A stretch of DNA of 64,000 nucleotides from Actinomycetes bacterium (lineage in GTDB: Bacteria; Actinomycetota; Acidimicrobiia; Acidimicrobiales; RAAP-2), in assembly GCA_021778895.1 (NCBI GenBank), contig JAJYBR010000002.1, positions 1 to 64,000 on the forward strand, given 5' to 3'. Under the pieces are notes generated by a model. It did no database searches, was not told where the DNA came from, and was given only the letters and a program-made list of their open reading frames with translations. Of this stretch, positions 33,087 to 51,470 are shown piece by piece. Positions within the stretch are counted from its first letter, which is position 1. Each line of letters opens with the position of its first letter. Both the position numbers and the translations under genes were made by a program.

Positions 33087-33159
33087 GCCCCCATCGTCTA
33101 GCGGCCTAGGACACCACCCTTTCAAGGTGGCGGCACGGGTTCGAATCCCGTTGGGGGTG
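33087..33159 (+). tRNA. tRNA-Glu (TTC anticodon), integration target
   Basis: Acceptor GCCCCCA/TGGGGGT, anticodon stem CCACC/GGTGG with loop CTTTCAA giving TTC, T-arm ACGGGTTCGAATCCCGT. The discriminator is G, CCA not encoded. The 3' half is the left copy of the 47-bp att repeat, so the gene remains complete after integration. Confidence 0.96.
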
Positions 33160-33162
33160 CTC
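33116..33162 (+). repeat. Attachment-site repeat, left copy (within tRNA-Glu)
   Basis: 47 bp from the anticodon loop (ACCCTTTCAAGG...) to three bases past the tRNA (GTGCTC), identical to 51424-51470. Flanking bases differ on both sides, so the repeat ends are sharp. Confidence 0.93.
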
Positions 33163-33220
33163 TTCTTCCTTCCTGGTCAGAGTGCGTATCTCGGCGAGCG
33201 CGCCAGGCCCCAGCGACCAC

Positions 33221-33279
33221 TTCCATAGCATCTTCCATAACTTCGCCGTGCCCGGGGCGTCCCAAGAGGTCCCATAACT
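33221..33279. repeat. CCATAACT motifs near the left att (possible integrase arm sites)
   Basis: TTCCATA at 33221-33227, TCTTCCATAACTTCGCC at 33231-33247 and CCCATAACT at 33271-33279. The same CTTCCATAACTccGCC string recurs inside the right end at 51197-51217. Position and repetition suggest arm-type binding sites of the integrase or excisionase. Confidence 0.45.
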
Positions 33280-33322
33280 GCGGCGAGTGCACGCGGGCGT
33301 CGGGCAGGAACCCGTCCTGTCC

Positions 33323-33643
33323 ATGAACACGACAGCCACCACCAGCCACCCCGGTCCCGACCGGTTCCTCACGGTGCCCGAGCTCATCGAGCGCTGGCCG
33401 ATCGGGCGCAACTCGACCTACGCGCTTCTAAAAAGCCCCGATTTTCCGCGGGCCCTGGTCTTGCTGCGCCAAACCAACGGCCAGGCGCGCTCCATGGGCT
33501 ACCTCGAGGCCGACATCCGGGCCTTCGAGGAGGCCCACATGGTGCACGCGAGCGAGCTCGAGCTCGACGTCGAGCCCGACGCGGACGCTCCAGCCGGCCT
33601 GCCGCCGGCCAAGCGGGCCCAGCCACGCCGGAGGACCCGCTGA
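33323..33643 (+). CDS. AlpA/excisionase-like helix-turn-helix protein
   Basis: 106 residues. FLTVPELIERWPIGRNSTYALLKSPDFPRAL is a MerR/AlpA-type winged HTH and GYLEADIRAFEE its recognition-wing helix. The second half is acidic, then basic (AKRAQPRRRTR). Lies directly upstream of the integrase, sharing one base, so an excisionase or directionality role is likely. ATG at 33323 has only a weak SD (GGCAGGAA, about 12 bases away). Confidence 0.72.
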   Translation: MNTTATTSHPGPDRFLTVPELIERWPIGRNSTYALLKSPDFPRALVLLRQTNGQARSMGYLEADIRAFEEAHMVHASELELDVEPDADAPAGLPPAKRAQPRRRTR

Positions 33644-35166
33644 TGCCGGCCAAGGGATCTACCGGCACCACCCGGCGCCCGCCGCTGCGAAGCGACCGCG
33701 GCGTCAAGCTCTACGCACCCACGTTGTCGAAGCCCTATTTTCGTGTGGTCGCGGCCGGCCAGGTCGAGCGCACGAGCGCTCCCGTGCCACTCGAGCACCT
33801 CGCCGCGAGCGCGGCCGCCAAGTTCGCGGGCCGCGACCTCGACGCCGTGACGGTGCGAGCGCGACGCGAGGCCGACGATCTCTTCGACCAGATGGTGCGC
33901 TGGGCCAAGCATCAGACGAGCCCGACGCGACGAGGCGAGCGCACGGTGGACGCCCTCTGTGACCGACGGCTCGAGGAGTTGCGCGCCAAGGGGCGGGCGC
34001 GCTCAACGATCGATCTCAACGAGAGCCTGATGCGCCTCTACGTGCGTCCGGCGATCGGCCACGTCGAGGTCGCGGACTGGAGCCCGGAACACTCACTCGC
34101 CGTGCTGAACGCAGCGCGTGAGACCTGTGGGGCCGAGCGCGTCGCCGACCTCGGCAAGGTGCTGCGCAGCCTCGTCACGCTGGCCCATCGCAAGCCGCTG
34201 TGGCTCTCGCGCGACGAGGACCCGATGGAGGGAGTGGAGTTCCGCGTGCGCGCCACGAGACAGGGCGAGAGCGTCCACTACGTGCCCATGAAGGAGCGCC
34301 CCTCGACCGACCAGGTCGAGTCCCTGTCCACCTCGATGCAGGAGGTCGGGTGCTCGACCCAGGCCTTCCACGACGGCCGGCCGACGACGCGCGTCACCGT
34401 CGACCGGGGGTGGGGCTGGCTGTTCACCCAGACCATGGGCAAGTGTGGACCTCGCTTCGGCGAGGGGGTGGCCCTCACCGTGACGAGCGTGGCGCGCCCG
34501 CTCGCCGAGGTCCTCTCGGCGATTGAGGAGGACCTCACGCTCAACCCGGCCAGTCGGGCGGCGCGGCGCAAGGCCGTCATCGACCTGCCCCACGGCTACG
34601 CCATCGATCCCGGGCGCCGCCTGATCAACATCTTCGAGACAGTCGAGTGGGAGGGCTCCACGCCCTACATCGCCCCGCCCGAGGAGCGCGCCTCGGGCAA
34701 GGCGCCCAAGTCCGAGAAGGAGCGCTGGACGATTTACCCGGCGAGCCTCGTGAAAGCGATGGCCGGGCGCTGCGCCGAGCTGCTCGAGCGCTTCGGGCCC
34801 GAGCTGGGTCCCCACGCGCTGCTCTTTCCCGCCGGCGACCACTACTTCGTCCAGGTGCCCTTGGACCCGCGACGGCCCTCACGGGGCACGCGCTGGCAGG
34901 ACCAGGACTGGTGGAGTCGCAGCCACTTCCGAAAGACGATGTACCGCAACGCCGCCGCCCGGGCGGAGGGGTGGCCAGACACACCGAACTTCCCCTTCGA
35001 GAACCTGCGCCACCACTTCGCTACCTGGGCCAAGCGCCACGGGTACCCGGACGAGCTCATCAGCCACTGCATGGGCCACGCCACGGTCGACTACACCCAG
35101 CGGCGCTACTTCCGCACCGGCGCCGACACGATTCCCGACGGCATGGCGGCTTCGGAGGGACTATAA
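33643..35166 (+). CDS. Tyrosine recombinase (island integrase)
   Basis: 507 residues. N-terminal SAM-like/core-binding region (about 95-180, TVDALCDRRLEELRAKGRARSTI) and a catalytic domain: R271 in CGPRFGEG, R456 in NLRHHFATW, His in CMGHATVDYTQ, Tyr nucleophile Y489 in RRYF. The His of the usual HxxR is Glu here (E453-N-L-R). A roughly 100-residue insertion sits between the first Arg and the second box. Expected to recombine the 47-bp tRNA-Glu repeat. Start ATG overlaps the excisionase stop. Confidence 0.88.
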   Translation: MPAKGSTGTTRRPPLRSDRGVKLYAPTLSKPYFRVVAAGQVERTSAPVPLEHLAASAAAKFAGRDLDAVTVRARREADDLFDQMVRWAKHQTSPTRRGERTVDALCDRRLEELRAKGRARSTIDLNESLMRLYVRPAIGHVEVADWSPEHSLAVLNAARETCGAERVADLGKVLRSLVTLAHRKPLWLSRDEDPMEGVEFRVRATRQGESVHYVPMKERPSTDQVESLSTSMQEVGCSTQAFHDGRPTTRVTVDRGWGWLFTQTMGKCGPRFGEGVALTVTSVARPLAEVLSAIEEDLTLNPASRAARRKAVIDLPHGYAIDPGRRLINIFETVEWEGSTPYIAPPEERASGKAPKSEKERWTIYPASLVKAMAGRCAELLERFGPELGPHALLFPAGDHYFVQVPLDPRRPSRGTRWQDQDWWSRSHFRKTMYRNAAARAEGWPDTPNFPFENLRHHFATWAKRHGYPDELISHCMGHATVDYTQRRYFRTGADTIPDGMAASEGL

Positions 35167-35391
35167 GGCGCCCGTGCCAGACGCCCGGCTTTACCGAACG
35201 AACCCGGCAACCAAGGGCCCACAATGTCCGCGTAATGCACGTTCTCAGCTCTGCCAATGCGCCGGTGGTATGGCGTGGCCTTTTTGGAGATCATCGGGTC
35301 GCACGATGAACCACAGCGGGCATCACGTAGACCATTCATGACGAGGACAATCGATGCACCGAACACTTCGCTTCGTGTGACGGGTTCCACC

Positions 35392-35397
35392 TAGATT
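35392..35397 (+). promoter_or_regulatory. -10 box of the defence operon (leaderless)
   Basis: TAGATT, seven bases before the ATG at 35405. The 238 bp between integrase stop and this gene hold no other gene that I can support. Confidence 0.5.
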
Positions 35398-35404
35398 TGA
35401 CGAC

Positions 35405-38400
35405 ATGACCAGATTGGAGATCCTCACCCCGCCCGCACGCGTGCGCGGTCTCGTTCCTGGTCACGTGGTGGAGATTCTGAGCGCCCGCCCCCGGGGTGGT
35501 GACGCCCTCGAAGTCACCTACCGATCCGACGAGGGTGAGCTCGGTTCCCAGTTGCTCTACCGCGCCGACGAGGCTCGCCTGGAGCTGGTCGAAGCGGACG
35601 CCCGAGACTTCAGGGCCGACGGCGAACTCTTTCGCCTCGTCGCCGAGGCCCATCGCATCAGCCTCGCGCACCTCTTCGATCCGCTGCTCGCGGTGCACAC
35701 CTCGGTCGTCGAGCCCTTGCCCCATCAGATCACGGCCGTCTACGAGCTGATGCTGCCACGCCAGCCGCTGCGCTTCCTGCTGGCCGATGACCCGGGCGCC
35801 GGCAAGACCATCATGTCGGGTCTCTTCATCAAGGAGCTGGTCGTGCGTGGCGACGTCGAGCGCTGCCTCGTGGTCTCACCGGGCTCTCTGGCCGAGCAGT
35901 GGCAAGACGAGCTCTTCTCGAAGTTTCAGCTGCCCTTTGACATCTTCACCAACGAAAAGGCCGAGGCAGCGCGAAGCGGCAACTACTTCAGCGAGCACCA
36001 CCTCGTAATCGCGCGCCTCGACAAGCTCTCACGTGACGAAGAGCTCCAGGAGAAGCTCTTCGCCCCCGGCGTGGAGTGGGACCTCGTCATCTTCGACGAG
36101 GCCCACAAGCTCTCGGCCTCCTACTTCGGGCGCGAGGTGAAGTACACCAAGCGCTACCAGTTGGCCCAGCGCCTCGGCGCGCGCGCCCGGCACCTGCTGC
36201 TACTCACGGCGACTCCCCACGCGGGTAAAGAGGAGGACTTCCAGCTGTTCTTGGCCCTGCTCGACCCCGACCAGTTCGAGGGGCGGCCCCGCGCGGGCAC
36301 CTCACCGGTCGACGTCACCGACATCATGCACCGCGCGGTGAAAGAGGACCTGCTCACCTTCGAGGGCAAGCCCCTGTTCCCCGAGCGCGTGGCCGAGACG
36401 ATCCCCTTCGCGCTCAGTGAGGACGAGGCCGAGCTCTACGACGCCGTCACGGCCTACGTGCGCGAGCAGTTCAACCGTGCCGACGAGTTGGAGAACAAAC
36501 GGCGCGGCACGGTGGGTTTCGCGCTCACCGTCCTCCAGCGCCGCCTCGCCTCCTCGCCCGAGGCGATCCTGCAGTCCCTGCGCCGGCGTCGCGATCGCTT
36601 AAGCGCTCGACTCGAAGAGGAGGCGCGCCCCACGACGCCGCTGCAGGGACGAAGCCTGGACGAGGACGAGCTCGACGAGCTCGACGAGGCACCCGATACC
36701 GAGTTCGACGCCGAGGAGAGCGAGATCCTCGACGAGGCGACCGCCGCCACCACGACCGCACAGTTGCGCGAGGAGATCGCCGCCCTCGAGAGGCTAGAGG
36801 CAGTGGCACAGCGTCTGCGGGTGCACGGGCGCGACGCTAAGTGGCAGGCGCTCGCCGGCGTACTCGGCGAGATCTTCTCTCCCGGCTCTTCCCCCATGGC
36901 CGATGAGCACGCCAAGCTCGTCGTCTTCACCGAGCACCGCGACACGCTCAACTACCTAGTTGAGCGCGTCTCGAGCTACCTCGGTCGCCCTGACGCCGTC
37001 GTCGCGATCCACGGCGGAGTGAACCGCGCCGAGCGCGCCGCTCGCCAGGAGGCCTTCACGAACGATCCCCGCGTTCAGGTTCTCGTCGCGACCGACGCGG
37101 CGGGCGAGGGCATCAACCTCCAGCGGGCCCACCTCATGGTCAACTACGACCTGCCCTGGAACCCCAACCGACTCGAGCAGCGCTTCGGGCGCATCCATCG
37201 CATTGGCCAGAAGCAGGTCTGCTACCTCTGGAACCTCGTCGCGGGCGAGACCCGCGAGGGCGAGGTCTACCAGCTGCTGCTGCGCAAGCTCGACGAGGCC
37301 CGGACCTCGCTCGGCGGACAGGTCTTCGACGTGCTCGGCAAGCTGAACTTCGACGGGCGGCCCTTGAAGGACCTGCTCATCGAGGCCATCCGCTACGCCG
37401 ACCTACCCGAGGTGCGCGCCCAGCTCGACCAGGTGGTCGCCTCCGCGCTCGACGTCGAACACCTGCGCCGACTCATCGCCGACCAGGCTCTGGCCAGCGA
37501 GGCCATGGACATCGCCAACGTATTTCGGGTTCGCCAGGAGATGGAGTTGCGCGAGGCCCGCCGACTCCAGCCGGGACTCATCGAGAGCTTCTTCCTCGAC
37601 GCTTTTGCGCGCCTCGGTGGCCGCTACTACGAACGCGAGCCGCGCCGCTTCGAGATCACTTTCGTGCCCGCCGACCTTCGGCGCCACCGCAGCCGCACCT
37701 CCTCGCGTGAACCGGTCCTCGAGCGTTACGAGCGCGTCGTCTTCTCCCGCGAGCTCATCGCGCCCCCCGGCGAGGTTCGCGCCGCCTTCCTCGCCCCCGG
37801 ACACCCCTTGCTCCAGGCCGTCATCGACCTCACGCTCGCTGCGCACCGGACCTTGCTCGACGAGGGTGCCGTCCTCGTCGACCCCCGTGACGCGGGACTC
37901 AGCCCCCGAGCGCTGGTCTTTCTCTCGCACCAAGTCCGAAACGGCCAGATCACCGTAAGTGGTCGACCGCGCGTCATCTCCGAGCAGCTCCTTTTCGTCG
38001 AGGTGGACGCCGACGGACACCAGCGCGCGGCAGGTGACGCCCCCTACCTCGACTACCGCCCGCTCGCCGCCTCCGACCCGTCTCCGGGCGAGATCCTCGC
38101 ACGGCCCGAATGCGCCTTCGCGCGCAGAGACGTCGGTGACCTGGTGATGGACTACGCGGTGACGACCGTGGCCCGCGAGCACGCGGACGCGGTGCGTTCA
38201 CGCATGCGAGCTCGTGTCGAGCGCACGGCGCTCGCGGTGCGCGATCGGCTCACCAAGGAGATCGCCCACTGGGATCACCGCGCCGCGACTCTGCTCGAGC
38301 AGGAAGCCACGGGCAAGGTCAACGCCAAGCTGAACGCCCGCGAAGCCCAGCGCCGGGCCGATGAGCTAAGCGCACGCCTGAGCGCCCGTTTGGCCGAGCT

Positions 38401-38908
38401 CGAGCGCGAAGGCGACGTCGCCTCACTCGCGCCGCGCATCGTGGGCGCGGCCCTCATCATCCCCCAGGGGCTGCTCGATCATCTAGGCGGCGTCGCCCCG
38501 GCGACAACGACCACGAACGGCGTCGATCGACTGGCCGTTGCCGCTCGGGCGCGCGAGATCGTGATGGATCGCGAGCGCGCCATCGGTTTCGTGCCCGTTG
38601 ACCGCGAGTTCGATCACGTCGGCTACGACATCGAGAGCCTCAACCCCGCGACCGGTGAGGTCCGCTTTATCGAGGTGAAGGGCCGCGTCGACGGCGCCGG
38701 CCAGATCACCGTCACGCGCAACGAGCTGGTGACGGCGCTCAACCGTCCAGAGCAGTTCATCCTCGCCGTCATCGAGTTCGCGTCCGACGGCTCGTATCGC
38801 GAGACCTACCTGCGTGCGCCCTTCCACGACAACCCGAGCTTCTCGGAGATCTCGCGGACTTACGATTTAGCAAAGCTCATCGCCGAGGGCGTGCCCGATG
38901 TCGCGTGA
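35405..38908 (+). CDS. SNF2/SF2 helicase with C-terminal DUF3883 nuclease-like domain
   Basis: 1167 residues, first gene of the putative defence operon. Helicase core: Walker A DDPGAGKT (K134), DEAH box at 231-234 (VIFDEAHKLS), TATPHAG, then VVFTEHRDT, VLVATDAAGEGINLQ and RFGRIHRIGQ, all SNF2/COG0553-like. An acidic insert (EDELDELDEAPDTEFD) lies about residue 420-435. C-terminal residues about 1050-1140 are DUF3883: GYDIES ... FIEVKGR gives D1075, E1090 and K1092, a spacing fitting the PD-(D/E)xK nuclease signature. Likely couples ATP-driven DNA translocation to cleavage; DrmD of DISARM is a related helicase, but drmA, drmB and drmC are absent here. Confidence 0.85.
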   Translation: MTRLEILTPPARVRGLVPGHVVEILSARPRGGDALEVTYRSDEGELGSQLLYRADEARLELVEADARDFRADGELFRLVAEAHRISLAHLFDPLLAVHTSVVEPLPHQITAVYELMLPRQPLRFLLADDPGAGKTIMSGLFIKELVVRGDVERCLVVSPGSLAEQWQDELFSKFQLPFDIFTNEKAEAARSGNYFSEHHLVIARLDKLSRDEELQEKLFAPGVEWDLVIFDEAHKLSASYFGREVKYTKRYQLAQRLGARARHLLLLTATPHAGKEEDFQLFLALLDPDQFEGRPRAGTSPVDVTDIMHRAVKEDLLTFEGKPLFPERVAETIPFALSEDEAELYDAVTAYVREQFNRADELENKRRGTVGFALTVLQRRLASSPEAILQSLRRRRDRLSARLEEEARPTTPLQGRSLDEDELDELDEAPDTEFDAEESEILDEATAATTTAQLREEIAALERLEAVAQRLRVHGRDAKWQALAGVLGEIFSPGSSPMADEHAKLVVFTEHRDTLNYLVERVSSYLGRPDAVVAIHGGVNRAERAARQEAFTNDPRVQVLVATDAAGEGINLQRAHLMVNYDLPWNPNRLEQRFGRIHRIGQKQVCYLWNLVAGETREGEVYQLLLRKLDEARTSLGGQVFDVLGKLNFDGRPLKDLLIEAIRYADLPEVRAQLDQVVASALDVEHLRRLIADQALASEAMDIANVFRVRQEMELREARRLQPGLIESFFLDAFARLGGRYYEREPRRFEITFVPADLRRHRSRTSSREPVLERYERVVFSRELIAPPGEVRAAFLAPGHPLLQAVIDLTLAAHRTLLDEGAVLVDPRDAGLSPRALVFLSHQVRNGQITVSGRPRVISEQLLFVEVDADGHQRAAGDAPYLDYRPLAASDPSPGEILARPECAFARRDVGDLVMDYAVTTVAREHADAVRSRMRARVERTALAVRDRLTKEIAHWDHRAATLLEQEATGKVNAKLNAREAQRRADELSARLSARLAELEREGDVASLAPRIVGAALIIPQGLLDHLGGVAPATTTTNGVDRLAVAARAREIVMDRERAIGFVPVDREFDHVGYDIESLNPATGEVRFIEVKGRVDGAGQITVTRNELVTALNRPEQFILAVIEFASDGSYRETYLRAPFHDNPSFSEISRTYDLAKLIAEGVPDVA

Positions 38909-38946
38909 GCTAGACCCGCAAACTCATACCGAGCACGAGGAGTGAC

Positions 38947-41805
38947 GTGGCCCGCAAGCTGATCGAAGTCGCCCTGCCCCTGAAGGCGATCAACGAGGCC
39001 TCGGCCCGCGAGAAGTCCATCCGCCACGGGCATCCTTCGACCCTGCACCTCTGGTGGGCGCGTCGTCCCCTGGCCGCCGCTCGCGCGGTCCTCTTCGCTC
39101 AGCTCGTCGACGATCCGTCGGCCCACCCCGACCTCTTTCCCACCGAGGAGGATCAGCACGTCGAGCGCGAGCGGCTCTTTCGCATCCTCGAAGACCTCGT
39201 CGTCTGGGAGAACACGACGAACGAGGACGTGCTGCAGCGCGCCCGGGCCGAGATCGAGCGCTCCTGGCGTCTCACCTGCGTCGAGCACGCCAACGACCCT
39301 CGCGCCGCCGAACTCTACGACCCCGACGTGCTGCCGGCCTTTCACGACCCGTTCGCTGGTGGCGGCGCCATACCCCTCGAGGCCCAGCGCCTCGGACTCG
39401 AGAGCTACGCCTCGGACCTCAATCCCGTCGCCGTCCTCATCAACAAGGCGATGATCGAGATCCCGCCGCGCTTCGCCGACCGTCCACCGGTCAACCCCGA
39501 AACCCGCCAGCGCACGACAACCGGCGCCTACCGCGGCGCCCAGGGTCTGACCGAGGACGTACGCCACTACGGCACGCTCCTACGTTCCCTCGCGCACGAG
39601 AAGCTCTCCGCCTACTACCAGCCCATCCGCGTCACGCCCGAGATGGTCGAGCGCCGCCCCGACCTTCGCCCCTACCAGGGCCAAGACCTCACGGTCATCG
39701 CATACCTGTGGGCGAGGACCGTGAAGAGCCCCGACCCCGCCTTCCACGATGTCGACGTCCCACTCGTCACTTCCTTCGCCCTCTCTACGAAGTCGGGCAA
39801 GGAGGCCTGGGTCGAACCGATCATCCACGATGACCGCACTGGCTACCGCTTCGAGGTCCGGCTCGGCCCGGTTCCCGAGAGCGCCAAGTCGGGCACGAAG
39901 TCTGCTCGCGGGGCGAACTTCGTGTGCCTCCTCTCCAACTCAGCGATCCAGCCTTCCTACATCAAGGGGGAAGGTCAATCAGGACGGATCGGCGATCGTC
40001 TCTTAGCGATCGTGTGCGAGGGAGCTCGCGGGCGCATCTACTTGGACCCCACCGATGAGCAGGAAGAAGTTGCCCGATGTGCGGCACCGACGTGGCGACC
40101 GGAACTCTCGCTGCCTGACGATCCTCGCAACTTCTGGACCAAGGACTACGGCCTCACGACCTACGGCGACCTCTTCACGCCACGCCAGCTGCTCGCTCTC
40201 ACGACCTTCTCCGACCTACTTGACGATGTGCGGGGGGTGGTACGGCGCGACGCGGTGGCGGCGGGGCTCCCCGACGACTCCAGCGGACTGGCCGACGGCG
40301 GAAACGGGGCTCGTGCGTACACCGAAGCAGTCGCTGTCTACCTCGCGTTTCTCATCAGCCAGCTATCCAACAGTGAGAGTTCTATCTGTCGCTGGGAACC
40401 TGGAAACCAACAAGTTCATGGAGTCTTCTCTCGTCAGGCCATACCGATGGTTTGGTCGTTCGCGGAGACGAATCCTCTTTCGACTTCAACTGGGAGCTTC
40501 TCTAACCTGTTGGAACGTCAAGTTAAGGGAATGCTCTCCCTAATGGCTGGTGGATGTGGTGAAGCGAAGCAACTTGACGCCCAGCACCAAACCTTGACCA
40601 AGGACAAGGTCGTCTCGACCGATCCGCCCTACTACGACAACATCGGCTACGCTGACCTTTCGGACTTTTTCTACGTATGGCTACGACGTAACCTGGGTTC
40701 AACGTTCCCGGAACTCTTCGCGACGGTAGCGACGCCGAAGGCCGAAGAGCTCGTGGCGACGCCGTATCGGCACGGCTCGAAGGAGTCAGCTGAGTCCTTC
40801 TTCCTCGCCGGCATGACCGAAGCGATGGCGCAGCTAGCGGAACAGGCTCATCCCGCACTCCCCATCACCATCTACTACGCCTTCAAGCAGTCCGAGACGA
40901 CGACGAGCGAAGGGACCACGTCCACAGGCTGGGAGACGTTCCTCGAGGCCGTCGTCCGAGCCGGCCTCGAGGTATCGGGCACGTGGCCGATTCGAACTGA
41001 GCTCTCGAATCGGATGATCGGGCTAGGCACAAACGCCCTCGCCTCCTCGATTGTGCTGGTGTGTCGGCGACGTCCAGTAGCAGCGACGCCAACAACGCGC
41101 CGCGAGTTCGTGGCGCGACTTCAGCAAGAACTCCCCCAGGCACTGCTCCTCCTCCAAGAAGCGGCCATCGCACCAGTTGACCTTCAACAGTCCGCCCTCG
41201 GTCCCGGCATGGCGATCTACACCTCGTACCGCGAGGTTCTCAACTCTGACGGGTCCCGGCTCGCTGTGAGAGAGGCGCTCGCACTCGTCAACGAGACCCT
41301 CGACGCCGTGATCGCCCAGCAGGAAGGTGACTTCGACCCTGACACTCGCTGGGCGATCAGCTGGTTCGAGCAGTTCGGCTTCGAGCCCGGCGACTTCGGG
41401 GTCGCCGAGACTTTGTCCAAGGCCAAGAACACCTCAGTGGCGGGTGTCGCCGCTGGCGGTATCGTCCGGGCTGACGGCGGCAAAGTCCGATTGCTTAAAC
41501 CCACCGAGCTCTCCGCCGAGTGGGATCCAGTGAAGGATGCTCGGCGGTCGACTTGGGAAGCGCTTCACCACCTCATCCGCGTGTTGGGTGAAGGTGGCGA
41601 GGCAGAAGCAGCAGAGCTCGTGAGTGCACTCGGCTCGACGGCCACGACTGCCCGCGAGCTCGCCTACCGGCTCTACGTCGTTTCCGAGCGGGCCGGTCGC
41701 GCCTCCGACGCCCTCCTCTACAACGGCCTCGTCCAGAGCTGGACCGAGATCCAAGTTCAGGTGGGGTCTACCACGTCCGTATCAAGCCAAAACCAACTGT
41801 TCTAA
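38947..41805 (+). CDS. DUF1156-family DNA methylase (COG1743)
   Basis: 952 residues. DUF1156 opens the protein (KLIEVALPLKAINEASAREKSIRHGH, LHLWWARRPLAAAR). SAM-binding motif I is HDPFAGGGAIPLEAQ (D134 to G140); the catalytic motif IV is TDPPYYDN (D559-P-P-Y562), the type that methylates exocyclic amino groups (N6-adenine or N4-cytosine). GTG at 38947 has GAGGAG six bases upstream; 38 bp after the helicase and 8 bp before the next gene. The stretch about 40-40.7 kb is poorer in GC, as if the target-recognition part was exchanged. Probable modification or self-recognition enzyme of the system. Confidence 0.87.
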   Translation: MARKLIEVALPLKAINEASAREKSIRHGHPSTLHLWWARRPLAAARAVLFAQLVDDPSAHPDLFPTEEDQHVERERLFRILEDLVVWENTTNEDVLQRARAEIERSWRLTCVEHANDPRAAELYDPDVLPAFHDPFAGGGAIPLEAQRLGLESYASDLNPVAVLINKAMIEIPPRFADRPPVNPETRQRTTTGAYRGAQGLTEDVRHYGTLLRSLAHEKLSAYYQPIRVTPEMVERRPDLRPYQGQDLTVIAYLWARTVKSPDPAFHDVDVPLVTSFALSTKSGKEAWVEPIIHDDRTGYRFEVRLGPVPESAKSGTKSARGANFVCLLSNSAIQPSYIKGEGQSGRIGDRLLAIVCEGARGRIYLDPTDEQEEVARCAAPTWRPELSLPDDPRNFWTKDYGLTTYGDLFTPRQLLALTTFSDLLDDVRGVVRRDAVAAGLPDDSSGLADGGNGARAYTEAVAVYLAFLISQLSNSESSICRWEPGNQQVHGVFSRQAIPMVWSFAETNPLSTSTGSFSNLLERQVKGMLSLMAGGCGEAKQLDAQHQTLTKDKVVSTDPPYYDNIGYADLSDFFYVWLRRNLGSTFPELFATVATPKAEELVATPYRHGSKESAESFFLAGMTEAMAQLAEQAHPALPITIYYAFKQSETTTSEGTTSTGWETFLEAVVRAGLEVSGTWPIRTELSNRMIGLGTNALASSIVLVCRRRPVAATPTTRREFVARLQQELPQALLLLQEAAIAPVDLQQSALGPGMAIYTSYREVLNSDGSRLAVREALALVNETLDAVIAQQEGDFDPDTRWAISWFEQFGFEPGDFGVAETLSKAKNTSVAGVAAGGIVRADGGKVRLLKPTELSAEWDPVKDARRSTWEALHHLIRVLGEGGEAEAAELVSALGSTATTARELAYRLYVVSERAGRASDALLYNGLVQSWTEIQVQVGSTTSVSSQNQLF

Positions 41806-41813
41806 GGCGAGCC

Positions 41814-44800
41814 ATGGCGACGACGAATCGAGACCGCATCAATCGAGCCCTTGACCTGCTTCGCGATGGACTCGGCCCATTCGTCGAGCGTGAACTGCTG
41901 CGCGTGAGCAAGGTCGACGCCACGACCCTCGCCGAGCGCTACCTGCCCGACGACCGGATCAACCGAGGCAAGGTCCCCTCGGAGTGGGACGCCGGAACAC
42001 TCCTGAAGGCCATGTGGGACGCCTGGCAGCCGGTCTTTCGCACCACCCTCGGTCCGAGCGAGCGCAGCCTGGTGTCGGAGTTGCGCACCACGCGTAACCA
42101 CGCCGCGCACCAACAGCCCTTCAGTTTCGACGACACCTACCGCGCTCTCGACTCGGCCGAGCGACTCCTCAACGCCGTCTCGGCGCCCGAACAGGCGGGC
42201 GAGATCGCGCGCTCCAAGGGCGAGCTGCTTCGCTTGCGCCACGAGGAGCAGTCACGGGCCGAGCGCAAGAAGGCGGCGGACGCAACCGTTTCGTCACAAG
42301 GCTCGGTCCAGCTGCCGGCGTGGCGCGACGTCGTCGCCCCCCACGACGACGTCGCCCAGGGGGTGTACCAAAACGCCGAGTTCGCGGCCGACCTTTGGCA
42401 GGTCTACCTTGGTGGCGCCTCCTCGGAGTACCAGGACCCGCGAGAGTTCTTCGCCCGTACTTACCTGACCGAGAGTCTCCGGGCGCTTCTGCGTGGGGCC
42501 TTACGACGTCTCTCAGGCACGGGTGGAGATCCGGTCATCCAGCTGCAGACCAACTTCGGCGGCGGCAAGACCCACTCGATGCTGGCCCTCTACCACTTGG
42601 TTTCGGGAGCGGAGGTCTCGACCCTGCCCGGAGTCGAGGAGATCGCGAAGGAGGAGGGGCTCAACGCGCTACCTGCGGCTCGGCGGATCGTTCTCGTGGG
42701 GACCAAGATCTCCCCGGCCACGCCCTCGGTCAAGCCCGACGGGACGGTCGTGCGCACACTCTGGGGCGAGCTCGCCTACCAGCTCGGCGGGGCCGAGGCC
42801 CACGCCCTCATCGCCGACGACGATGAGCACGCAACCAGTCCCGGTGACGTCCTGCGCACCCTCATGGACACGTTCGGACCCTGCGTGATCCTCGTCGACG
42901 AGTGGGTCGCCTACGCCCGCCAGCTCCATGACGACTTCGATCTCGCCGGAGGCTCCTTCGACACCCAGTTCACCTTCGCCCAGGCCCTTACCGAGGCCGC
43001 CAGCGCGGCGCGGGCGTGCCTCCTCGTCGTCTCACTGCCCGCCTCGGACACCGGGTCGAGTGCCGGTGAAGACATCGAGGTCGGTGGTGAGCGGGGTCGA
43101 GCTGCGCTCGCGCGACTGCGCAACGCGGTCGGACGAGTGGAGACGTCCTGGCGACCCGCCAACGCCGAGGAGAGTTTCGAGATCGTGCGCCGACGACTCT
43201 TTAGCCCGCTCAGTGGCCGCGAGCAGTTCGTCGCGCGCGACGCAGTCGCCACCGCCTTCGCCCAGCTCTACCAGGCGAACGCGGAAGCCTTTCCGACTGA
43301 GTGTGGCTTTCCCGAGTACGAGAAGCGCATCCGCGATGCCTACCCGATCCATCCGGAAGTCTTCGACCACCTCTACGGCGACTGGTCCACCCTGCCGAAG
43401 TTTCAGCGCACTCGCGGCGTGCTGCGCCTCATGGCAGCTGTCATTCACGCGCTGTGGACGAGTGGCAATCGTGATCCGCTGATCCTGCCCGCACACCTGC
43501 CCCTCGACCACGACGCCGTTCGCAGTGAGCTCACACGCTACCTACCGGACAACTGGAACCCGATCATCGACGCCGACGTGGACGGCCCCTCGTCGCTTCC
43601 CGCACGCCTCGACGAGCAGGTGCCCGAGCTGGGTCGCTACCTCGCCGCTCGTCGCGTGAGTCGAACCGTCTTTCTCGCCACGGCTCCCACTACCCAGGCC
43701 GCCAACCGGGGGGTCGATGACCGCCACGTCCGGCTGGGGGCCGTCATGCCCGGCGAGCCGCCGGCCAAGATCACCGACGCTCTCCGTCGCCTTACTCAGG
43801 CGGCCACCTATCTCTACAACGACCAAGCCCGCTTCTGGTTCGACACGCAACCGACCGTGACCAAGCTGGTGGCCGACCGGTCGTTGCGCCTCCAGCGCGA
43901 CCAGCCCGACGATGTTCTGCGCGAGCTGCGCCGTCGCGTAGAGAACGCGACCGGCCACGAGTTCCCTGGGGTCCACAACCTCCCTCAGAGTGGCGCCGAC
44001 GTCCCGGACCTGCCCACGACGCGCCTCGTCACCCTGCGGCCCGAAGACGCGTACCTGCGCACCCCCGACGACGACAGTCCAGCCCAGCGCCGGGCCCGAG
44101 AGCTGCTCGAGTCTCGCGGCACGGCGCCGCGGACCTATCGCAATACCCTCGTCTTCCTCGCACCGGACCAGTCCCGCTACGACGACCTGAAAGTGGCGAT
44201 CTGTGACTACCTCGCCTGGATCGAGGTGCTCGACGACCATGAGACCCTTAACCTCACGCCCTCCCAGGTGCGCCAGGCCGAGACTCAGCGTGACGCGGCC
44301 ACGCGACGGGTGGACGCTCAGGTGCCCGAGACCTACCAGTGGTTGATCGTGCCCACTCAAGCCAGTCCGAAGGACCCGCTCGTCCTGAGCGCCCAGAAAC
44401 TATCCACTTCAGGTGCGCTCGACGCTCGCGTGAAGCGCAAGCTCGTGCAGGACGGCCTTCTGGCTCCCGTCCTCGGAGCCACCACTCTGCGCCAGGAGCT
44501 CGACCGAGTTCCCCTCTGGCCGAGTGACGCCAGCTCAGTTGCCATCGCTCGACTGGTCGAGTACTTCGCGAGCTACCCCTACCTGACGCGCCTCAGCGAG
44601 CCGAGTGTCCTTTACCGAGCAATCGAATCCGGAGTGAGCCAGCTCATGTGGCAGACCGACACCTTCGCCTACGCCGAAGGGCTGGATAGCGCTTCGGGGC
44701 GCTACCTCGGGCTTCGCGGCGGTGAATCGGTCTCGGTCCAGGACGGGGACCCGGGACTTGTGGTTCAGGCCGACGTCGCCGCGGCTCAGTTCGAGCGTGA

Positions 44801-45149
44801 GACGCCCACCGTCTCCAGCCCCGACACTCGTGACGCTTCGGGCCAGGCTAACTTCGGACTCGAAGCCCAGGGCGCAGAGCCGGCGACTACGACGCCAACC
44901 GGCCCGGCACTCCCGCGGCGCTACCACGCGACCGTTCATCTCGACCCCCAGCGAGCGAGTGAGGTCACCCGCGTCTACCAAGAGGTCGTCTCGCACCTCG
45001 TGAGTTCGTCCCTCGACGGCGTCACCGTCAAAGTGACTCTCGAGATCGAGGCTACGAGCACTGAGGGATTCTCCGACGCTCTGGTCCGCATCGTCAGCGA
45101 GAACGGCACCACGTTGAAGTTCTCTCAGCAAGCCTTCGAGGAGAACTAG
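41814..45149 (+). CDS. Swt1-type HEPN domain fused to DUF499 AAA ATPase (COG1483)
   Basis: 1111 residues. Residues 1-155 match the Swt1-family HEPN domain: WDAGTLLKAMWDAWQPVF, SLVSELRTTRNHAAHQQ and FDDTYRALDSAERLL; the Rx4H ribonuclease motif is R94-N-H-A-A-H99. The rest is DUF499: Walker A NFGGGKT (K252, T253), Walker B CVILVDEWVAYARQ (D362, E363), then a long helical part and a C-terminal SNF-like Ca 80-residue domain (YHATVHLDPQRASEVTRVYQEV). A nucleotide-dependent sensor or assembly platform controlling an RNase is the inference. ATG at 41814, 8 bp after the methylase. Confidence 0.85.
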   Translation: MATTNRDRINRALDLLRDGLGPFVERELLRVSKVDATTLAERYLPDDRINRGKVPSEWDAGTLLKAMWDAWQPVFRTTLGPSERSLVSELRTTRNHAAHQQPFSFDDTYRALDSAERLLNAVSAPEQAGEIARSKGELLRLRHEEQSRAERKKAADATVSSQGSVQLPAWRDVVAPHDDVAQGVYQNAEFAADLWQVYLGGASSEYQDPREFFARTYLTESLRALLRGALRRLSGTGGDPVIQLQTNFGGGKTHSMLALYHLVSGAEVSTLPGVEEIAKEEGLNALPAARRIVLVGTKISPATPSVKPDGTVVRTLWGELAYQLGGAEAHALIADDDEHATSPGDVLRTLMDTFGPCVILVDEWVAYARQLHDDFDLAGGSFDTQFTFAQALTEAASAARACLLVVSLPASDTGSSAGEDIEVGGERGRAALARLRNAVGRVETSWRPANAEESFEIVRRRLFSPLSGREQFVARDAVATAFAQLYQANAEAFPTECGFPEYEKRIRDAYPIHPEVFDHLYGDWSTLPKFQRTRGVLRLMAAVIHALWTSGNRDPLILPAHLPLDHDAVRSELTRYLPDNWNPIIDADVDGPSSLPARLDEQVPELGRYLAARRVSRTVFLATAPTTQAANRGVDDRHVRLGAVMPGEPPAKITDALRRLTQAATYLYNDQARFWFDTQPTVTKLVADRSLRLQRDQPDDVLRELRRRVENATGHEFPGVHNLPQSGADVPDLPTTRLVTLRPEDAYLRTPDDDSPAQRRARELLESRGTAPRTYRNTLVFLAPDQSRYDDLKVAICDYLAWIEVLDDHETLNLTPSQVRQAETQRDAATRRVDAQVPETYQWLIVPTQASPKDPLVLSAQKLSTSGALDARVKRKLVQDGLLAPVLGATTLRQELDRVPLWPSDASSVAIARLVEYFASYPYLTRLSEPSVLYRAIESGVSQLMWQTDTFAYAEGLDSASGRYLGLRGGESVSVQDGDPGLVVQADVAAAQFERETPTVSSPDTRDASGQANFGLEAQGAEPATTTPTGPALPRRYHATVHLDPQRASEVTRVYQEVVSHLVSSSLDGVTVKVTLEIEATSTEGFSDALVRIVSENGTTLKFSQQAFEEN

Positions 45150-45326
45150 CCCCTCGGACCGACCGTGCACCCGACGGCCTCGTGTCACGAGGGGTGGCTC
45201 TTGAGGTGCAGTCCGCCTGAACCCCTACCGGGGCGTCGAGGCCTTCGGTCAAGCTGGCACAGGTTAGAGGGGAACCCGCGCTCAGCCCGGGTTGCGCCGC
45301 ACTCCGCGCCGCGGACGGTCATCTCC

Positions 45327-45566
45327 ATGCCGAGAGACCTGCCTTCGACGTACAAGTTCACCGTCACCAGCGGCGAGCGCACTGTATCCCTGCGGGACGC
45401 TGTTACCGCCGTGTGGAGCGGCCAGGCGTCGCCGAACGACTTCGAGGTCGAGATTGCCCCCGTCATACCTCAGTCGCCTAGCTATCTCAGGGGCCGAGAG
45501 GTTGAGTACTCGAACCAGAGTCCCCAACCTCTCGTGTCACACGGCTCATCTACCACTGAGGTATGA
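45327..45566 (+). CDS. Small unknown protein coupled to the recombinase-like gene
   Basis: 79 residues beginning MPRDLPSTYKFTVTSGERTV and containing SLRDAVTAVWSGQASPNDFEVEIAP, then a low-complexity polar tail. No family recognised. An in-frame start at 45165 would give 133 residues but the extra part looks non-coding. The stop overlaps the ATG of the next gene (ATGA), which is the main reason to accept it as real. Confidence 0.45.
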   Translation: MPRDLPSTYKFTVTSGERTVSLRDAVTAVWSGQASPNDFEVEIAPVIPQSPSYLRGREVEYSNQSPQPLVSHGSSTTEV

Positions 45567-48226
45567 CCGTGCCGACTCCGACTACGTCTGCCGCGCCGTG
45601 GCGGGGCTTCGTTGACCCAAGAGGACTCCGCCTCGCTCCGGATTTGCAGGCACGTCTCGATGCCGGGGAACACATCCTCTTCGGCGGTCGATCCTCCTCC
45701 AGCGGTAACAAGGGCCGTGATCTGGCGGCGCGGGACGTGCTCGCGGCGGCAGAGCAGTTCGCCGAAAAGACCGGGCTGGACTTTCGCCCCGTCATGCCTT
45801 CACTCGAGGAGATCACGCTCCGCCTGGCAAACTGCCGCTCCGAGAGTTTTGACGGAGGGGACGGTCAGCGATTCTCGTGCCGGTTTCTCCTCATCGACCT
45901 CATTGCGGAGGCTCAGATCGCCCTCCTCGTCGCCACGTCGTCAGGCGCCAAGATCACGGTCGATGACGACCAACCATTCGTCAAGAGGGCCGCCCAGGAG
46001 TACAAGCGGGTGGGCGCCGCCATCTTCTCCGTCAAGGAACTCGATCGTGGTGGTCGCCAGGACTGGGCACTCGCGCCCCTCATCATGGCCATTCAGGCGA
46101 ACAATGGCGCGCTATCGGACGAGATCGGCTGCGGTCCCATCGACGAGGGCCGCTCCATGATTGCCTTCGTTCAGGGCACGAGCGCCAAGAAGATGGCCAT
46201 GGGGATGCCCAAACGGACACGACGAGAGCAGCGGAACCGAACCGGCACCGAGATGGTCGGCGGGCAGGTGGCCTATCACCTCAGTTCACCCCCGCCACCC
46301 GGCTTTGGCGTCTGCTGGCTTCGGGGAGCGGCGACCAATCCGACCGAGCGAGTGCTCTACCTCGACACCGAGGCGTGTCGCCCCGCCGAGAGCGCCGTTG
46401 CATCGGGCCTCGGCTCGGTGCGCTACCCCGACGGTCACCCCTCGGCCGGGCAACTCGTGGATCAGGTGGCGAACGTCAGGTACGCACTCACCCACTATGG
46501 TCGCCCTGGTTACACAAAGCGCTCAATCGTTCTCGAGTTGGCCGCTCGCCACTACTCCACCGTGATGCTGCGGGGCAATCACTCCCCGTCGACCACCATC
46601 AGTACGGATGACGGCACCAAGGTGCTCGACGCGATCATCGACAATCTCGAGGTCTACGAGTTCGGCGTTCTGAGTCGCAACATCGGCTCTGGGATCGAGC
46701 CTGTCGAGATCTCCGGATGCGTGCCCCCAGACGGACCGTGGGCCAGTCCGGGGGACTTCGCAAGGATCCGCGCCTCCCTGAAGGAGACCGACGCGTCGAC
46801 GGCACAGGAGGTGTACCTCACCTTCTCTGGACTACGTGTGGCATACAACGGTTCGCCAGCCGTGATGCTCTCGGGGAAGAGGACTGGCACCGGACGTCAG
46901 CGGGACGAAACCCCGCGCTACCGCTTCGCGCGGGCCGATGGCTATCCCCACAAGGTCCGCTCCGTAGCTGAGAGCCGAAAGGTGAGCGCCCAGGCCTTTG
47001 CCGAGAGCATCGTCCAGGGGATCCTCGCGGTGGATGGCGTGTCTCTCGAGGCCTTCGATCCCGAGCGGTTCGGTGAACCGCGAGACACCAAGCTCGACCA
47101 GTTGCGAGCTCAGCGCACAAACGTGCTGGCCAGTCTGGACGCTCTCGCCAAGCGCACCGCCGCCCTCGAGAAGCGCCTCTTCGAGATGGGAGAGGACGGC
47201 GAACTCGTCCTGAGGGGCGCACTGCTCGCAAGGGTCCAAGAGGACTACAACCACATAGTTGAGCAAGAGCAGCCCGAGCTGGCTAATCGCCTGCGCCTCG
47301 TCGAGCACGAGGTGGCCGAGCGTGAATCCCTGCTGCCCCGCTCGACGCCTGCCGATCAACTTTTGCACCTCGTGGCGTCGCTGCGAGATTCCACCGATCG
47401 GAGCTACCGCGGCCAGTGGCTGGCGAGTCTCCGACAGGTCGTCTTTACGTCGAGCCTAAAGTTGGTCGACGGCCTACAGGTGCGAACCGTCAGTTGGGAA
47501 GGGCTCGTCGTGCTCGAGGCCCGAGGAGAGGAGTTCGCCATCCCCTTCGCCGGCGACTACGAGTACGGCGTTCGCCTGCGCAATCGCGAAATGACCCGTG
47601 GCCTCGTAGATCGGGTCCTTGATGCCCTTCGATCTGGGATGCCCATCAGTGCTTCCGAAGTGAGCCGGCCGACCTTGGTCATTCCCTCCGTGGCCGCCGC
47701 GCTGGGCGTCCCCACCTCCCACATGGCCCTCAACGGCTGCCGGGACCCGCGCGTGCTCAGAATCGCGGTCGCCATCCTCGAATCCCCGGACAGGACTGAC
47801 GCCGATGTCGGTATGACCCTCTCAGAGAGCGAGGCTCTCGTCGCCCGCATCCGCACTGTTCACGGCGGCGAGGCCGCCTTACGATCTTGGATCAAGTCGC
47901 CAGATCCCGTCCACGCGGCGTTCTACGCCGTGGCTGCCGCCAACGGCGGGAGGGTAACTGCGGAGCACGTCCTTCGCCTCGTCCCTTCGACATCGCTTGG
48001 CCAGATCTACAACGTTGCGGGGGAACTGCGCCGCTCCTCATCGCGATGGTCCACCCAACGCAAGAAGGGCTACGTCCTAGCCCCCTGTGCCTGTGGCTCG
48101 TTCGCAGCAGATCTGTTAGAGATCCCGGAACCCGTTGGTGCGGTGTGTCTCGACTGTCGCACCGATGAGTCCGGCCTCGAGTGGCCGGCCGAACCCTATG
48201 ACGAGTACCGCTCCCGGGTTCTCTAG
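45563..48226 (+). CDS. Large serine-recombinase-like protein, possibly degenerate
   Basis: 887 residues. The layout resembles large serine recombinases: an N-terminal resolvase-like part (HILFGGRSSSSGNKGR; AAIFSVKELDRGGR), a recombinase-like part (MPKRTRREQRNRTGTEMVGG; LDAIIDNLEVYEFGVLSRN), a coiled coil at about 510-600 (LDALAKRTAALEKRLFE; LRLVEHEVAERE) and a helical C-terminus. The zinc cysteines normally between the recombinase part and the coiled coil are missing; instead a zinc-ribbon pair CAC...CLDC closes the protein. Resolvase motifs are weak, so activity is doubtful. If it is not a recombinase, its function is unknown. ATG overlaps the small ORF before it. Confidence 0.5.
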   Translation: MTVPTPTTSAAPWRGFVDPRGLRLAPDLQARLDAGEHILFGGRSSSSGNKGRDLAARDVLAAAEQFAEKTGLDFRPVMPSLEEITLRLANCRSESFDGGDGQRFSCRFLLIDLIAEAQIALLVATSSGAKITVDDDQPFVKRAAQEYKRVGAAIFSVKELDRGGRQDWALAPLIMAIQANNGALSDEIGCGPIDEGRSMIAFVQGTSAKKMAMGMPKRTRREQRNRTGTEMVGGQVAYHLSSPPPPGFGVCWLRGAATNPTERVLYLDTEACRPAESAVASGLGSVRYPDGHPSAGQLVDQVANVRYALTHYGRPGYTKRSIVLELAARHYSTVMLRGNHSPSTTISTDDGTKVLDAIIDNLEVYEFGVLSRNIGSGIEPVEISGCVPPDGPWASPGDFARIRASLKETDASTAQEVYLTFSGLRVAYNGSPAVMLSGKRTGTGRQRDETPRYRFARADGYPHKVRSVAESRKVSAQAFAESIVQGILAVDGVSLEAFDPERFGEPRDTKLDQLRAQRTNVLASLDALAKRTAALEKRLFEMGEDGELVLRGALLARVQEDYNHIVEQEQPELANRLRLVEHEVAERESLLPRSTPADQLLHLVASLRDSTDRSYRGQWLASLRQVVFTSSLKLVDGLQVRTVSWEGLVVLEARGEEFAIPFAGDYEYGVRLRNREMTRGLVDRVLDALRSGMPISASEVSRPTLVIPSVAAALGVPTSHMALNGCRDPRVLRIAVAILESPDRTDADVGMTLSESEALVARIRTVHGGEAALRSWIKSPDPVHAAFYAVAAANGGRVTAEHVLRLVPSTSLGQIYNVAGELRRSSSRWSTQRKKGYVLAPCACGSFAADLLEIPEPVGAVCLDCRTDESGLEWPAEPYDEYRSRVL

Positions 48227-48271
48227 ATTGCTTAAGGCGTCGCCCCTCATGATCATGGACGCACACGCTCG

Positions 48272-50227
48272 TCAAGCGAAGTGGTCACGCATGTACTGCT
48301 CTCCGACCTCGAGGTTCACTCCGGCGATACCGACGAGGAAGCGGCACCGTTCGCGCTTGGTGTTCTCATCGCCGGTTCCGAATCGTGACGTGGGATGCTT
48401 CCTCTTCGTGGCCATCGTCGCATAGCACTGGGTCTTCGCACGAGTGAGCGCAACGTACAGCAGACGACGCTCTTCGTTGACATCCGCGTCATGGAACGGC
48501 ATCTGCTCATTCTCGACGCCTACGACGATCGCGGTGTCGAAGGTGAGGCCCTTGGACTTCGCCATTGTCATCAGCCGCACGCCTTCGGCCTCCTTGAGGG
48601 CCTCGTCAGCCCCCTTCGGCTCAAGCTGAGAGAGGAAGCGTGTCAGGGGTACCTCTGGTTCGATGACTGGTCGCACCAACTCCAGAAGGCGCACCGCTTC
48701 ATCGCTCAGCGCAGGGATGCCCAGCTCAGTAAGCCACGCGCCCGTACTTGCCTCTTCCAGCACCCAGTCCGTCCACGAGGCGCCAGGGTGACCGAGACGC
48801 CAGGCTTCGATGTCGGCGTGCGCCGTCGCGAGTCGGCGCTCAACGACCTCCATAGTGCCGGCAGCGGCGCGCCCGATTCGAGGACCCACGCCGGAGAACC
48901 CCGCGTCACGCAGACGCCTCAGAGACTCAGCGAAGCCCTCCGACGGACCACACTGGTCATAGGCCGCTTCAGCCACCTCCACGTTCGTTCCGGTCACGGG
49001 TCCGACGAGTGCCCACCACGCGAGGGCGTCGTTCGAGTTGTATGCCAACTGGCCCAGTGCGATCACTGCCCGGAGGCGCAACGAGGCCAGAGCTGTCTTC
49101 ACCCATTCCACATTGGCCAGAGTCAGCCCTTGAGCCTCAAAGTAGGGCCGCAGCACCTCGGCCCAGGTATCCGCCTGAGTGCGCACCAACACCGCCACCT
49201 TGGCGCTGGGGTCTTCCTGCAGGCGAGAGGCCGCAACCTGGGCCACGGCAGCGGCTTCAGCATCTCCGTTCTCGAAGCGCAAGTAAGCGAAGGTTCCCGG
49301 CACGGCGCCGGCAGCGGTGCTGAGCGGAGGTCGAGCAGTCCGATCTGGGGCCGCCCCGATCACTGCTCCCGCGACTGCAACGATGTTCGCTCCGAACCGT
49401 CGGGTTTCGGTCAAGGTGTAGTCCTCACAGCCAGCAAACCGACTGTCGAACTCCCGGATGCCCGCGGGGTCCGCGTAGCGCCACCCGTAAATCGACTGGT
49501 CCTCATCGCCGATGGCCATGACTCGAACACCCTTTGAGGCAAGGGCTTCAACGAAGGCGACGTCAGCCGCGTTGAGGTCCTGGAACTCGTCGACGATGAG
49601 GAGATCCACCTCGGGTTCAACGTCGCCTCCGAGGTCCTCGATCGCCTCCTTCGCTCGGAAAGAGAGCTCCGCGAGCAGTGTGTAGCCGAATCGCCGACGG
49701 TGCTCGTCCCAGAGACCCATGTAGTGATCCCGAAGCGCCGGATCGATCGTCGCGAACGGCGTCGCCTTGCCGTAGAGGTCCTGCCACTGGGCGGCCATCT
49801 CCCGCTCAAGGTCCTTCACTCTCTTCACCCTGAGGCCTCTGTAGCCAAGGTCGCGGAGGAGATGAGCCTGGTGCTCGTGGATCAGCTCAGTCACTTCCCA
49901 GCTGTCGGCGATGCGGATCGGCGCTGGCAGAGCGCGACTCCCGAGGTCGAGCAGCCACGTGAGGGCGTAGGACGCGACGGTCGCGGGCTCGTTGACGACG
50001 TTGTCAAGCCCGTGCTCCGCAAGCGTTCCCGCGAACTCCGCAGTAGCAGCGCGAGTGAACGTCAGCATCTTCGCTCGTACCTCTTGCTCATGGAGCTTGC
50101 CCAACAGCGCGATCGCGGTCAGAGACTTACCGGTGCCGGGACCGGCCTGCACCCGCCCGTGCTTGGTGGTGTCGTGATCAGCAACCCTCCTCTGCGCTGG
50201 TGACAACATGGTCTCGTCGAACGGCAT
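48272..50227 (-). CDS. UvrD/Rep-like superfamily 1 DNA helicase
   Basis: 651 residues. Motif I QAGPGTGKSLTA, motif II LLIVDEFQDLN, motif III GDEDQSIYGWRYAD, motif IV TRRFG region, motif V MTMAKSKGLTFDTAIVVG and motif VI RRLLYVALTRAKT are all in place. Convergent with the recombinase-like gene, 45 bp apart. It could belong to the defence cargo, as UvrD-type helicases often do, or serve element maintenance. The ATG at 50225-50227 is preceded by only a modest SD (GGAGAC). Confidence 0.92.
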   Translation of the reverse strand: MPFDETMLSPAQRRVADHDTTKHGRVQAGPGTGKSLTAIALLGKLHEQEVRAKMLTFTRAATAEFAGTLAEHGLDNVVNEPATVASYALTWLLDLGSRALPAPIRIADSWEVTELIHEHQAHLLRDLGYRGLRVKRVKDLEREMAAQWQDLYGKATPFATIDPALRDHYMGLWDEHRRRFGYTLLAELSFRAKEAIEDLGGDVEPEVDLLIVDEFQDLNAADVAFVEALASKGVRVMAIGDEDQSIYGWRYADPAGIREFDSRFAGCEDYTLTETRRFGANIVAVAGAVIGAAPDRTARPPLSTAAGAVPGTFAYLRFENGDAEAAAVAQVAASRLQEDPSAKVAVLVRTQADTWAEVLRPYFEAQGLTLANVEWVKTALASLRLRAVIALGQLAYNSNDALAWWALVGPVTGTNVEVAEAAYDQCGPSEGFAESLRRLRDAGFSGVGPRIGRAAAGTMEVVERRLATAHADIEAWRLGHPGASWTDWVLEEASTGAWLTELGIPALSDEAVRLLELVRPVIEPEVPLTRFLSQLEPKGADEALKEAEGVRLMTMAKSKGLTFDTAIVVGVENEQMPFHDADVNEERRLLYVALTRAKTQCYATMATKRKHPTSRFGTGDENTKRERCRFLVGIAGVNLEVGEQYMRDHFA

Positions 50228-50496
50228 CTAGTCTCCTGTGCTGGTGATCTGCCAGCCGCGTAAGGTGACCGGACCCGCGGAGTCCGGCCAGTTGCTGGTG
50301 GATCCAGAGTGGCAGACGTCCGTCCACAACCGGTGTATGCGGTCGCCGCAACTTCCGCGCCAGTGCGCAAGACGTACCGTGCTGAATCTCTGATTCACGA
50401 GATCCGTACAACTCGAAGACACCCGTGAGGCAGGTTCCGGCTTGAGCGAAGAGCCCCCGGGGCCCGGTCATCCACCGAGCTCCGGGGACTCACGGC

Positions 50497-51423: not shown

Positions 51424-51470
51424 ACCCTTTCAAGGTGGCGGCACGGGTTCGAATCCCGTTGGGGGTGCTC
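51424..51470 (+). repeat. Attachment-site repeat, right copy
   Basis: 47 bp identical to 33116-33162, i.e. the 3' 44 bases of tRNA-Glu plus three more. There is no 5' half of a tRNA next to it, so it is an att remnant and not a gene. Confidence 0.93.

What the first reader, a model, noticed from the sequence alone, without database searches (positions are those of the whole stretch)
35405..45149. Three-gene operon: SNF2-DUF3883 helicase/nuclease, DUF1156 methylase, HEPN-DUF499 ATPase
A complete, tightly spaced operon (38 and 8 bp gaps) on a tRNA-integrated island. It joins a SNF2-like translocase bearing a D1075...E1090-x-K1092 nuclease-like signature, an amino-group DNA methylase (DPPY at 559-562), and a DUF499 AAA ATPase carrying a HEPN Rx4H (R94-H99) RNase-type domain. 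DUF499 and DUF1156 proteins are known from predicted antiphage loci, and DISARM has a related SNF2 helicase and methylase, but this set has no DISARM drmA/B/C, BREX pglZ or type I R-M subunits. It looks like DNA restriction plus a possible RNA-directed second line in one operon. Mechanism is inference.
Basis: partly seen in the sequence, partly recalled or inferred. Interest (0 to 1): 0.93.

Follow-up and report, generated by a model that had tools for sequence, protein, structure and literature searches.

The report
Known phage-defence operon, Hma
A genomic island beside a transfer-RNA gene carries a complete copy of Hma, an already described three-gene system that likely protects the bacterium from phages by marking its own DNA and cutting unmarked DNA, with a fused domain predicted to cut RNA as a second line.

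The parts
35405..38908 (+). HmaA: SNF2 helicase with C-terminal NOV_C/DUF3883 nuclease domain, 1167 aa
   Evidence: PADLOC HmaA 1491 bits over 1-1169 of 1176 positions; Pfam SNF2-rel_dom, Helicase_C, NOV_C
38546..38788 (+). NOV_C domain, aa 1048-1128, predicted PD-(D/E)XK nuclease; D1075, E1090, K1092
   Evidence: Pfam PF13020; model pLDDT 89; Hjc, SPARDA and EcoRV matches; D, E, K invariant in 42 rows
38947..41805 (+). HmaB: DUF1156 DNA methylase, 952 aa, GTG start; DPPY motif at aa 559-562 (40621-40632)
   Evidence: PADLOC HmaB 1451 bits over 8-965 of 967; PF06634; DPPY read
41814..45149 (+). HmaC: HEPN_Swt1-DUF499 AAA ATPase, 1111 aa
   Evidence: PADLOC HmaC 1032 bits over 3-941 of 941, aa 167-1110; Pfam HEPN_Swt1 and DUF499; Walker A GGGKT at 249-253
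41844..42182 (+). HEPN_Swt1 domain, aa 11-123, motif RNHAAH at aa 94-99
   Evidence: Pfam PF18731, 1.6e-33; motif read; lies outside the stretch matched by the HmaC profile
33087..33160 (+). tRNA-Glu(ttc), integration site of the island
   Evidence: ARAGORN
33116..33162 (+). left copy of the 47-bp exact repeat (island border)
51424..51470 (+). right copy of the 47-bp exact repeat (island border)
33643..35166 (+). tyrosine-type integrase of the island, 507 aa
   Evidence: PHROG integrase 3.9e-13; Pfam Phage_integrase 9e-06, 26.0 bits, just under its cut-off of 27.1
33287..33643 (+). small protein, weakly AlpA-like (possible excisionase/regulator)
   Evidence: Pfam Phage_AlpA E 0.059, below cut-off

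Best explanation
This operon is a complete Hma (helicase-methylase-ATPase) system, also called Type-1 BREX-related, on a tRNA-Glu island, and is predicted to protect its host by restriction and modification of DNA. HmaB (DUF1156, DPPY motif) likely methylates an amino group on host DNA. HmaC (DUF499 AAA ATPase) likely assembles the complex and senses foreign DNA. HmaA likely moves along unmodified DNA with its SNF2 motor and cuts it with its C-terminal PD-(D/E)XK domain. The HEPN domain fused to HmaC is predicted to cut RNA when the first line fails. Shown here: gene content, order, intactness, catalytic residues, nuclease fold (as a model), co-occurrence and island borders. Inferred: every catalytic activity, the order of events and the antiphage role.
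For: PADLOC HmaA/B/C match over nearly their whole profiles. 37 of 42 relatives with at least 7 kb held upstream of hmaC carry both other genes. The nuclease fold is supported, with D1075 kept in 44 of 44 and E1090/K1092 in 43 of 43 aligned HmaA rows. HEPN R, N and H are kept in 120 of 120 closest proteins listed; Walker A in 106 of 106 HmaC rows and the D of DPPY in 56 of 56 aligned HmaB rows. The same composition and model are in print (PMC8565338 passages; PMC12839542 section 29). PMC12839542 reports that an experimental study confirmed a phage-defence role of the helicase-nuclease in Halomonas meridiana (passage; that paper was not held).
Against: No activity was tested. 5 of the 42 loci lack one or both partners in the sequence held. 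The HEPN loop tryptophan is replaced in this clade and L021 has lost both it and the aligned arginine, so the RNA arm may be altered here. PMC8565338 calls HmaB an m5C methyltransferase in its text, against the adenine reading of PADLOC-DB and PMC12839542. Domains that PMC12839542 gives for the family (Tudor, inactive REase, RRM) were not tested here.
Confidence: 0.8

Rival explanations
1. A DISARM or BREX variant that has lost its other genes: the helicase is DrmD- or BrxHII-like and works with a methylase.
For: The helicase also matches DrmD (387 bits) and BrxHI/BrxHII (334 bits) models. PMC12839542 argues for common descent with Type-3 BREX (passages).
Against: HmaA scores 1491 bits, far above either. 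The NCBIfam DrmD equivalog scores 385.5 bits against its cut-off of 610. No DrmB, DrmC or PglZ model is among the listed rows for six island proteins.
Confidence: 0.03
2. The HEPN domain in this clade is not an active RNase: the system is restriction-modification only, and HEPN serves as a sensor or scaffold.
For: W97, kept in 116 of the 120 closest proteins listed, is A in the window and in P0015-P0018. In the wider set W is kept in 95 of 96 rows with an aligned motif; the exception, L021, also lacks the aligned R. HEPN of eukaryotic Swt1 is judged possibly inactive in PMC3710099 (passage).
Against: R94, N95, A98 and H99 are kept in all 120, the W97A clade included. PMC3710099 lists the DUF499-fused group as active (passage).
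Confidence: 0.2

Closest known systems
Hma (Payne et al. 2021, PMC8565338; passages read)
   Same: SNF2 helicase, DNA methylase and AAA ATPase in a three-gene operon; all three PADLOC models match
   Different: The HmaC profile covers aa 167-1110 only; the HEPN domain lies outside it. PADLOC's own synteny rules were not run.
Type-1 BREX-related system (Rakesh and Krishnan 2026, PMC12839542; section 29 and passages read)
   Same: DUF499 ATPase with N-terminal HEPN (1370 of 2446 taxa there), DUF1156 N6-methylase, SNF2 helicase with C-terminal PD-(D/E)XK nuclease (1921 taxa there), same proposed mechanism
   Different: Nothing found at the level of composition; the window's HEPN loop has A for W
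HEPN-DUF499 / SNF2-DUF3883 neighbourhood (Anantharaman et al. 2013, PMC3710099; passages read)
   Same: Swt1-like HEPN fused to DUF499 AAA ATPase, in operon with restriction-modification genes including SNF2-DUF3883
   Different: Described as a gene neighbourhood, not named as a system
Meiothermus taiwanensis WR-220 plasmid operon (NZ_CP021131.1)
   Same: Helicase-related, DUF1156 and Swt1-HEPN genes in the same order and strand with gaps of 37 and 6 bp; HmaC 56.8% identical over the whole length
   Different: On a 271-kb plasmid, not a tRNA island
DISARM and BREX
   Same: SNF2 helicase plus DNA methylase
   Different: HmaA, not DrmD or BrxHII, is the best helicase model; no DrmB, DrmC or PglZ in the listed rows

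Membership tests
Hma | HmaA helicase | tested here: met
   1491 bits, profile 1-1169 of 1176
Hma | HmaB methylase | tested here: met
   1451 bits, profile 8-965 of 967
Hma | HmaC ATPase | tested here: met
   1032 bits, profile 3-941 of 941
Hma | three genes in one operon | tested here: met
   Same strand, gaps 38 and 8 bp
Hma | antiphage activity | not testable with these tools
Type-1 BREX-related | DUF499 ATPase, with N-terminal HEPN in a subset | tested here: met
   Pfam DUF499 and HEPN_Swt1
Type-1 BREX-related | methylase with DUF1156 | tested here: met
   PF06634, 111.4 bits; target base not tested
Type-1 BREX-related | helicase with C-terminal active PD-(D/E)XK nuclease (in 79% of taxa) | tested here: met
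   Fold by model and D/E/K conservation; activity itself not tested
Type-1 BREX-related | N-terminal Tudor and inactive REase in the helicase, C-terminal RRM in the ATPase | not tested
   No model of these parts was made
DISARM | DrmA/DrmB/DrmC partners | tested here: not met
   No DrmB or DrmC in the listed PADLOC rows of six island proteins; DrmA appears only as a lower match of HmaA, 236 bits (25 of 52 rows shown)
BREX | PglZ present | tested here: not met
   No PglZ in the listed PADLOC rows of six island proteins (not all rows shown)

The most novel reading that the evidence does not exclude
A small clade of Hma systems, this one included, has changed the HEPN active-site loop from RNxWAH to RNxAAH while keeping R, N and H. 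Its RNA-cutting line is thereby retuned or switched off: a natural separation-of-function variant that would show whether the HEPN domain or the DNA nuclease carries Hma defence.
Probability: 0.25. Interest if true: 0.4.

Novelty: new member of a known kind. Interest (0 to 1): 0.2.

Why it matters
It settles that this island's operon is Hma and not a new system. It adds two usable facts: the catalytic residues of both predicted nucleases are kept across distant relatives, as expected if both work, and a clade with a natural change in the HEPN loop exists for comparison. A cultured Meiothermus with the same bare layout makes the two-line model testable.

Tried and rejected
Novel-system reading: rejected after PADLOC and the literature. 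DISARM/BREX membership: rejected.

Genes 45563-48226 and 48272-50227 as further parts of the system: rejected for now. BLASTP (E 1e-8) found no homolog of either, or of the integrase, in the other 109 loci held around HmaC relatives, though many of those loci are short. Gabija for the UvrD-like gene: best GajB match 136 bits, no GajA in the listed rows.

A conserved fourth gene between the Hma genes: not found. 47 same-strand ORFs of 200 aa or more in the gaps (up to two longest per gap, so some may be spurious) fell into 31 similarity groups, the largest of 9. This fits the published Hma-embedded candidates (passages).

No solved relative of HmaB (E 0.001) or HmaC (E 1) was found by sequence. 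Viral contigs gave no relative of the 887-aa protein. Serine recombinase reading of that protein: motifs fit and VIA-align 2 lists serine integrases spanning most of the chain, but many unrelated coiled-coil chains score as high or higher there, and Foldseek gave no match at E 0.001 or better, nor did a profile search of PDB sequences find one; it stays a lead.

Rows dropped: of 109 HmaC relatives, 3 under 300 bits; partners under 100 bits not counted; for the HEPN count, 9 gapped rows and L107, whose reading there does not align, were set aside, leaving 96 of 106. The 80 genome loci were chosen by similarity to a HEPN-bearing query, so they say nothing on how often HEPN is fused. The protein search scored 8000 candidates (a cap) and listed 120.

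Full report
Observation. The residues it named are all there: D1075, E1090, K1092; DPPY from 559; R94 and H99. Pfam gives SNF2-rel_dom, Helicase_C and NOV_C (PF13020; DUF3883 is its former name, recalled) in the first protein, DUF1156 in the second, HEPN_Swt1 and DUF499 in the third, all above cut-off.

Island. tRNA-Glu(ttc) lies at 33087-33160. Its 3' part recurs as a 47-bp exact repeat at 33116-33162 and 51424-51470. Between the copies lie an integrase gene, the three genes, an unannotated 887-aa gene and a UvrD-like helicase gene. GC is 0.659 inside, against 0.734 and 0.716 in the flanks. In the same genus another genome (G420) has a 72% identical integrase between two copies of the tRNA-Glu repeat about 9 kb apart, with a C5-cytosine methylase gene as cargo. 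HmaA matches at E 1e-100 or better occur in 2 of 61 genomes of the genus, the window's own included. The other, G438, holds an 89% identical HmaA on a contig with an integrase gene and a SMODS-type nucleotidyltransferase gene. The island is thus likely a mobile carrier whose cargo varies (inference).

Identity. The PADLOC models HmaA, HmaB and HmaC match over nearly their whole lengths with 1491, 1451 and 1032 bits. Hma was named in 2021 as a putative system, with 1,638 instances in 26 phyla (PMC8565338, passages). A 2026 survey (PMC12839542; section 29; passages) calls it Type-1 BREX-related: 2446 taxa, 1370 with HEPN fused to DUF499 and 1921 with a nuclease fused to the helicase. It proposes restriction-modification with HEPN as a last-resort effector. 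The pairing of HEPN-DUF499 with SNF2-DUF3883 was already in PMC3710099 (2013; passages), and the helicase-nuclease, COG1743 methylase and DUF499 operon in PMC7641849 (2020; passages). So composition and model are in print.

Co-occurrence. Among 80 genome loci found through HmaC, 42 have at least 7 kb held upstream of hmaC. Of these 37 carry both other genes, 2 only hmaA, 1 only hmaB, and 2 neither. hmaB and hmaC ORFs lie within 150 bp in 34 of 60 same-strand pairs; hmaA and hmaB in 5 of 38, with over 500 bp between them in 32 and another order in 1 (ORFs measured stop to stop). ORFs in the gaps are diverse, which fits the published Hma-embedded candidates (passages in PMC12111858, and PMC12988326). 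The window's copy is a bare one. So is that on a Meiothermus taiwanensis WR-220 plasmid, with gaps of 37 and 6 bp. Thermus thermophilus HB8 pVV8 has an occupied one, with Fic, HicA/HicB and HTH genes among the Hma genes and the helicase on the other strand.

Mechanism. The best-supported reading is restriction-modification with a predicted RNA-cutting backup. DPPY is the motif of amino methyltransferases (recalled), in line with the adenine reading of PADLOC-DB and PMC12839542 and against the m5C label in the text of PMC8565338; the base itself is untested. Everything beyond gene content, residues, fold and linkage is inference. The strongest caution from my own data is the W-to-A change in the HEPN loop of this clade: it may be neutral, a retuning, or a loss.

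Verdict. An ordinary, complete member of a described system, with one small clade-specific oddity. The neighbouring 887-aa gene is the less understood item on the island and is listed under things noticed.

Noticed in passing
window 45563-48226 (+): 887-aa protein with no Pfam, PADLOC, PHROG or NCBIfam match; 14 family members found, one being this cluster itself. It looks like a divergent large serine recombinase: R-x-S near the N-terminus in 14 of 14 and a DR-xx-R motif in 12 of 14 aligned rows (resolvase motifs recalled), C-terminal cysteines, and serine integrases among the VIA-align 2 rows over model residues of about 20-660. Foldseek itself gave nothing at E 0.001.
   Followed up: partly
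window 33116-51470; L128, L130, L134: The tRNA-Glu 3' end looks like an integration hot spot in this genus: paired copies occur about 14 kb apart in L128 and 9 kb apart in L130, the latter with a 72% identical integrase and other cargo; L134 has a copy near a relative of the 887-aa gene.
   Followed up: partly
window 48272-50227 (-): UvrD-like helicase of 651 aa inside the island, best matched by a phage helicase family (PHROG 1967, 182 bits); resembles GajB (136 bits) without a GajA in the listed rows.
   Followed up: no
L132:513-1898 (-) and L132:3377-4387 (-): In a same-genus genome the 89% identical HmaA shares a contig with a SMODS-type nucleotidyltransferase gene (CBASS-like, recalled) and an integrase gene.
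   Followed up: no
L021 (HmaC relative): A HEPN-bearing relative in which A stands at both R94 and W97 (RETANAAHH): perhaps an inactive HEPN.
   Followed up: no
window 54375-55301 (+): 308-aa protein just outside the island that reads like an HNH endonuclease (recalled look of the sequence); PHROG matches are of unknown function.
   Followed up: no
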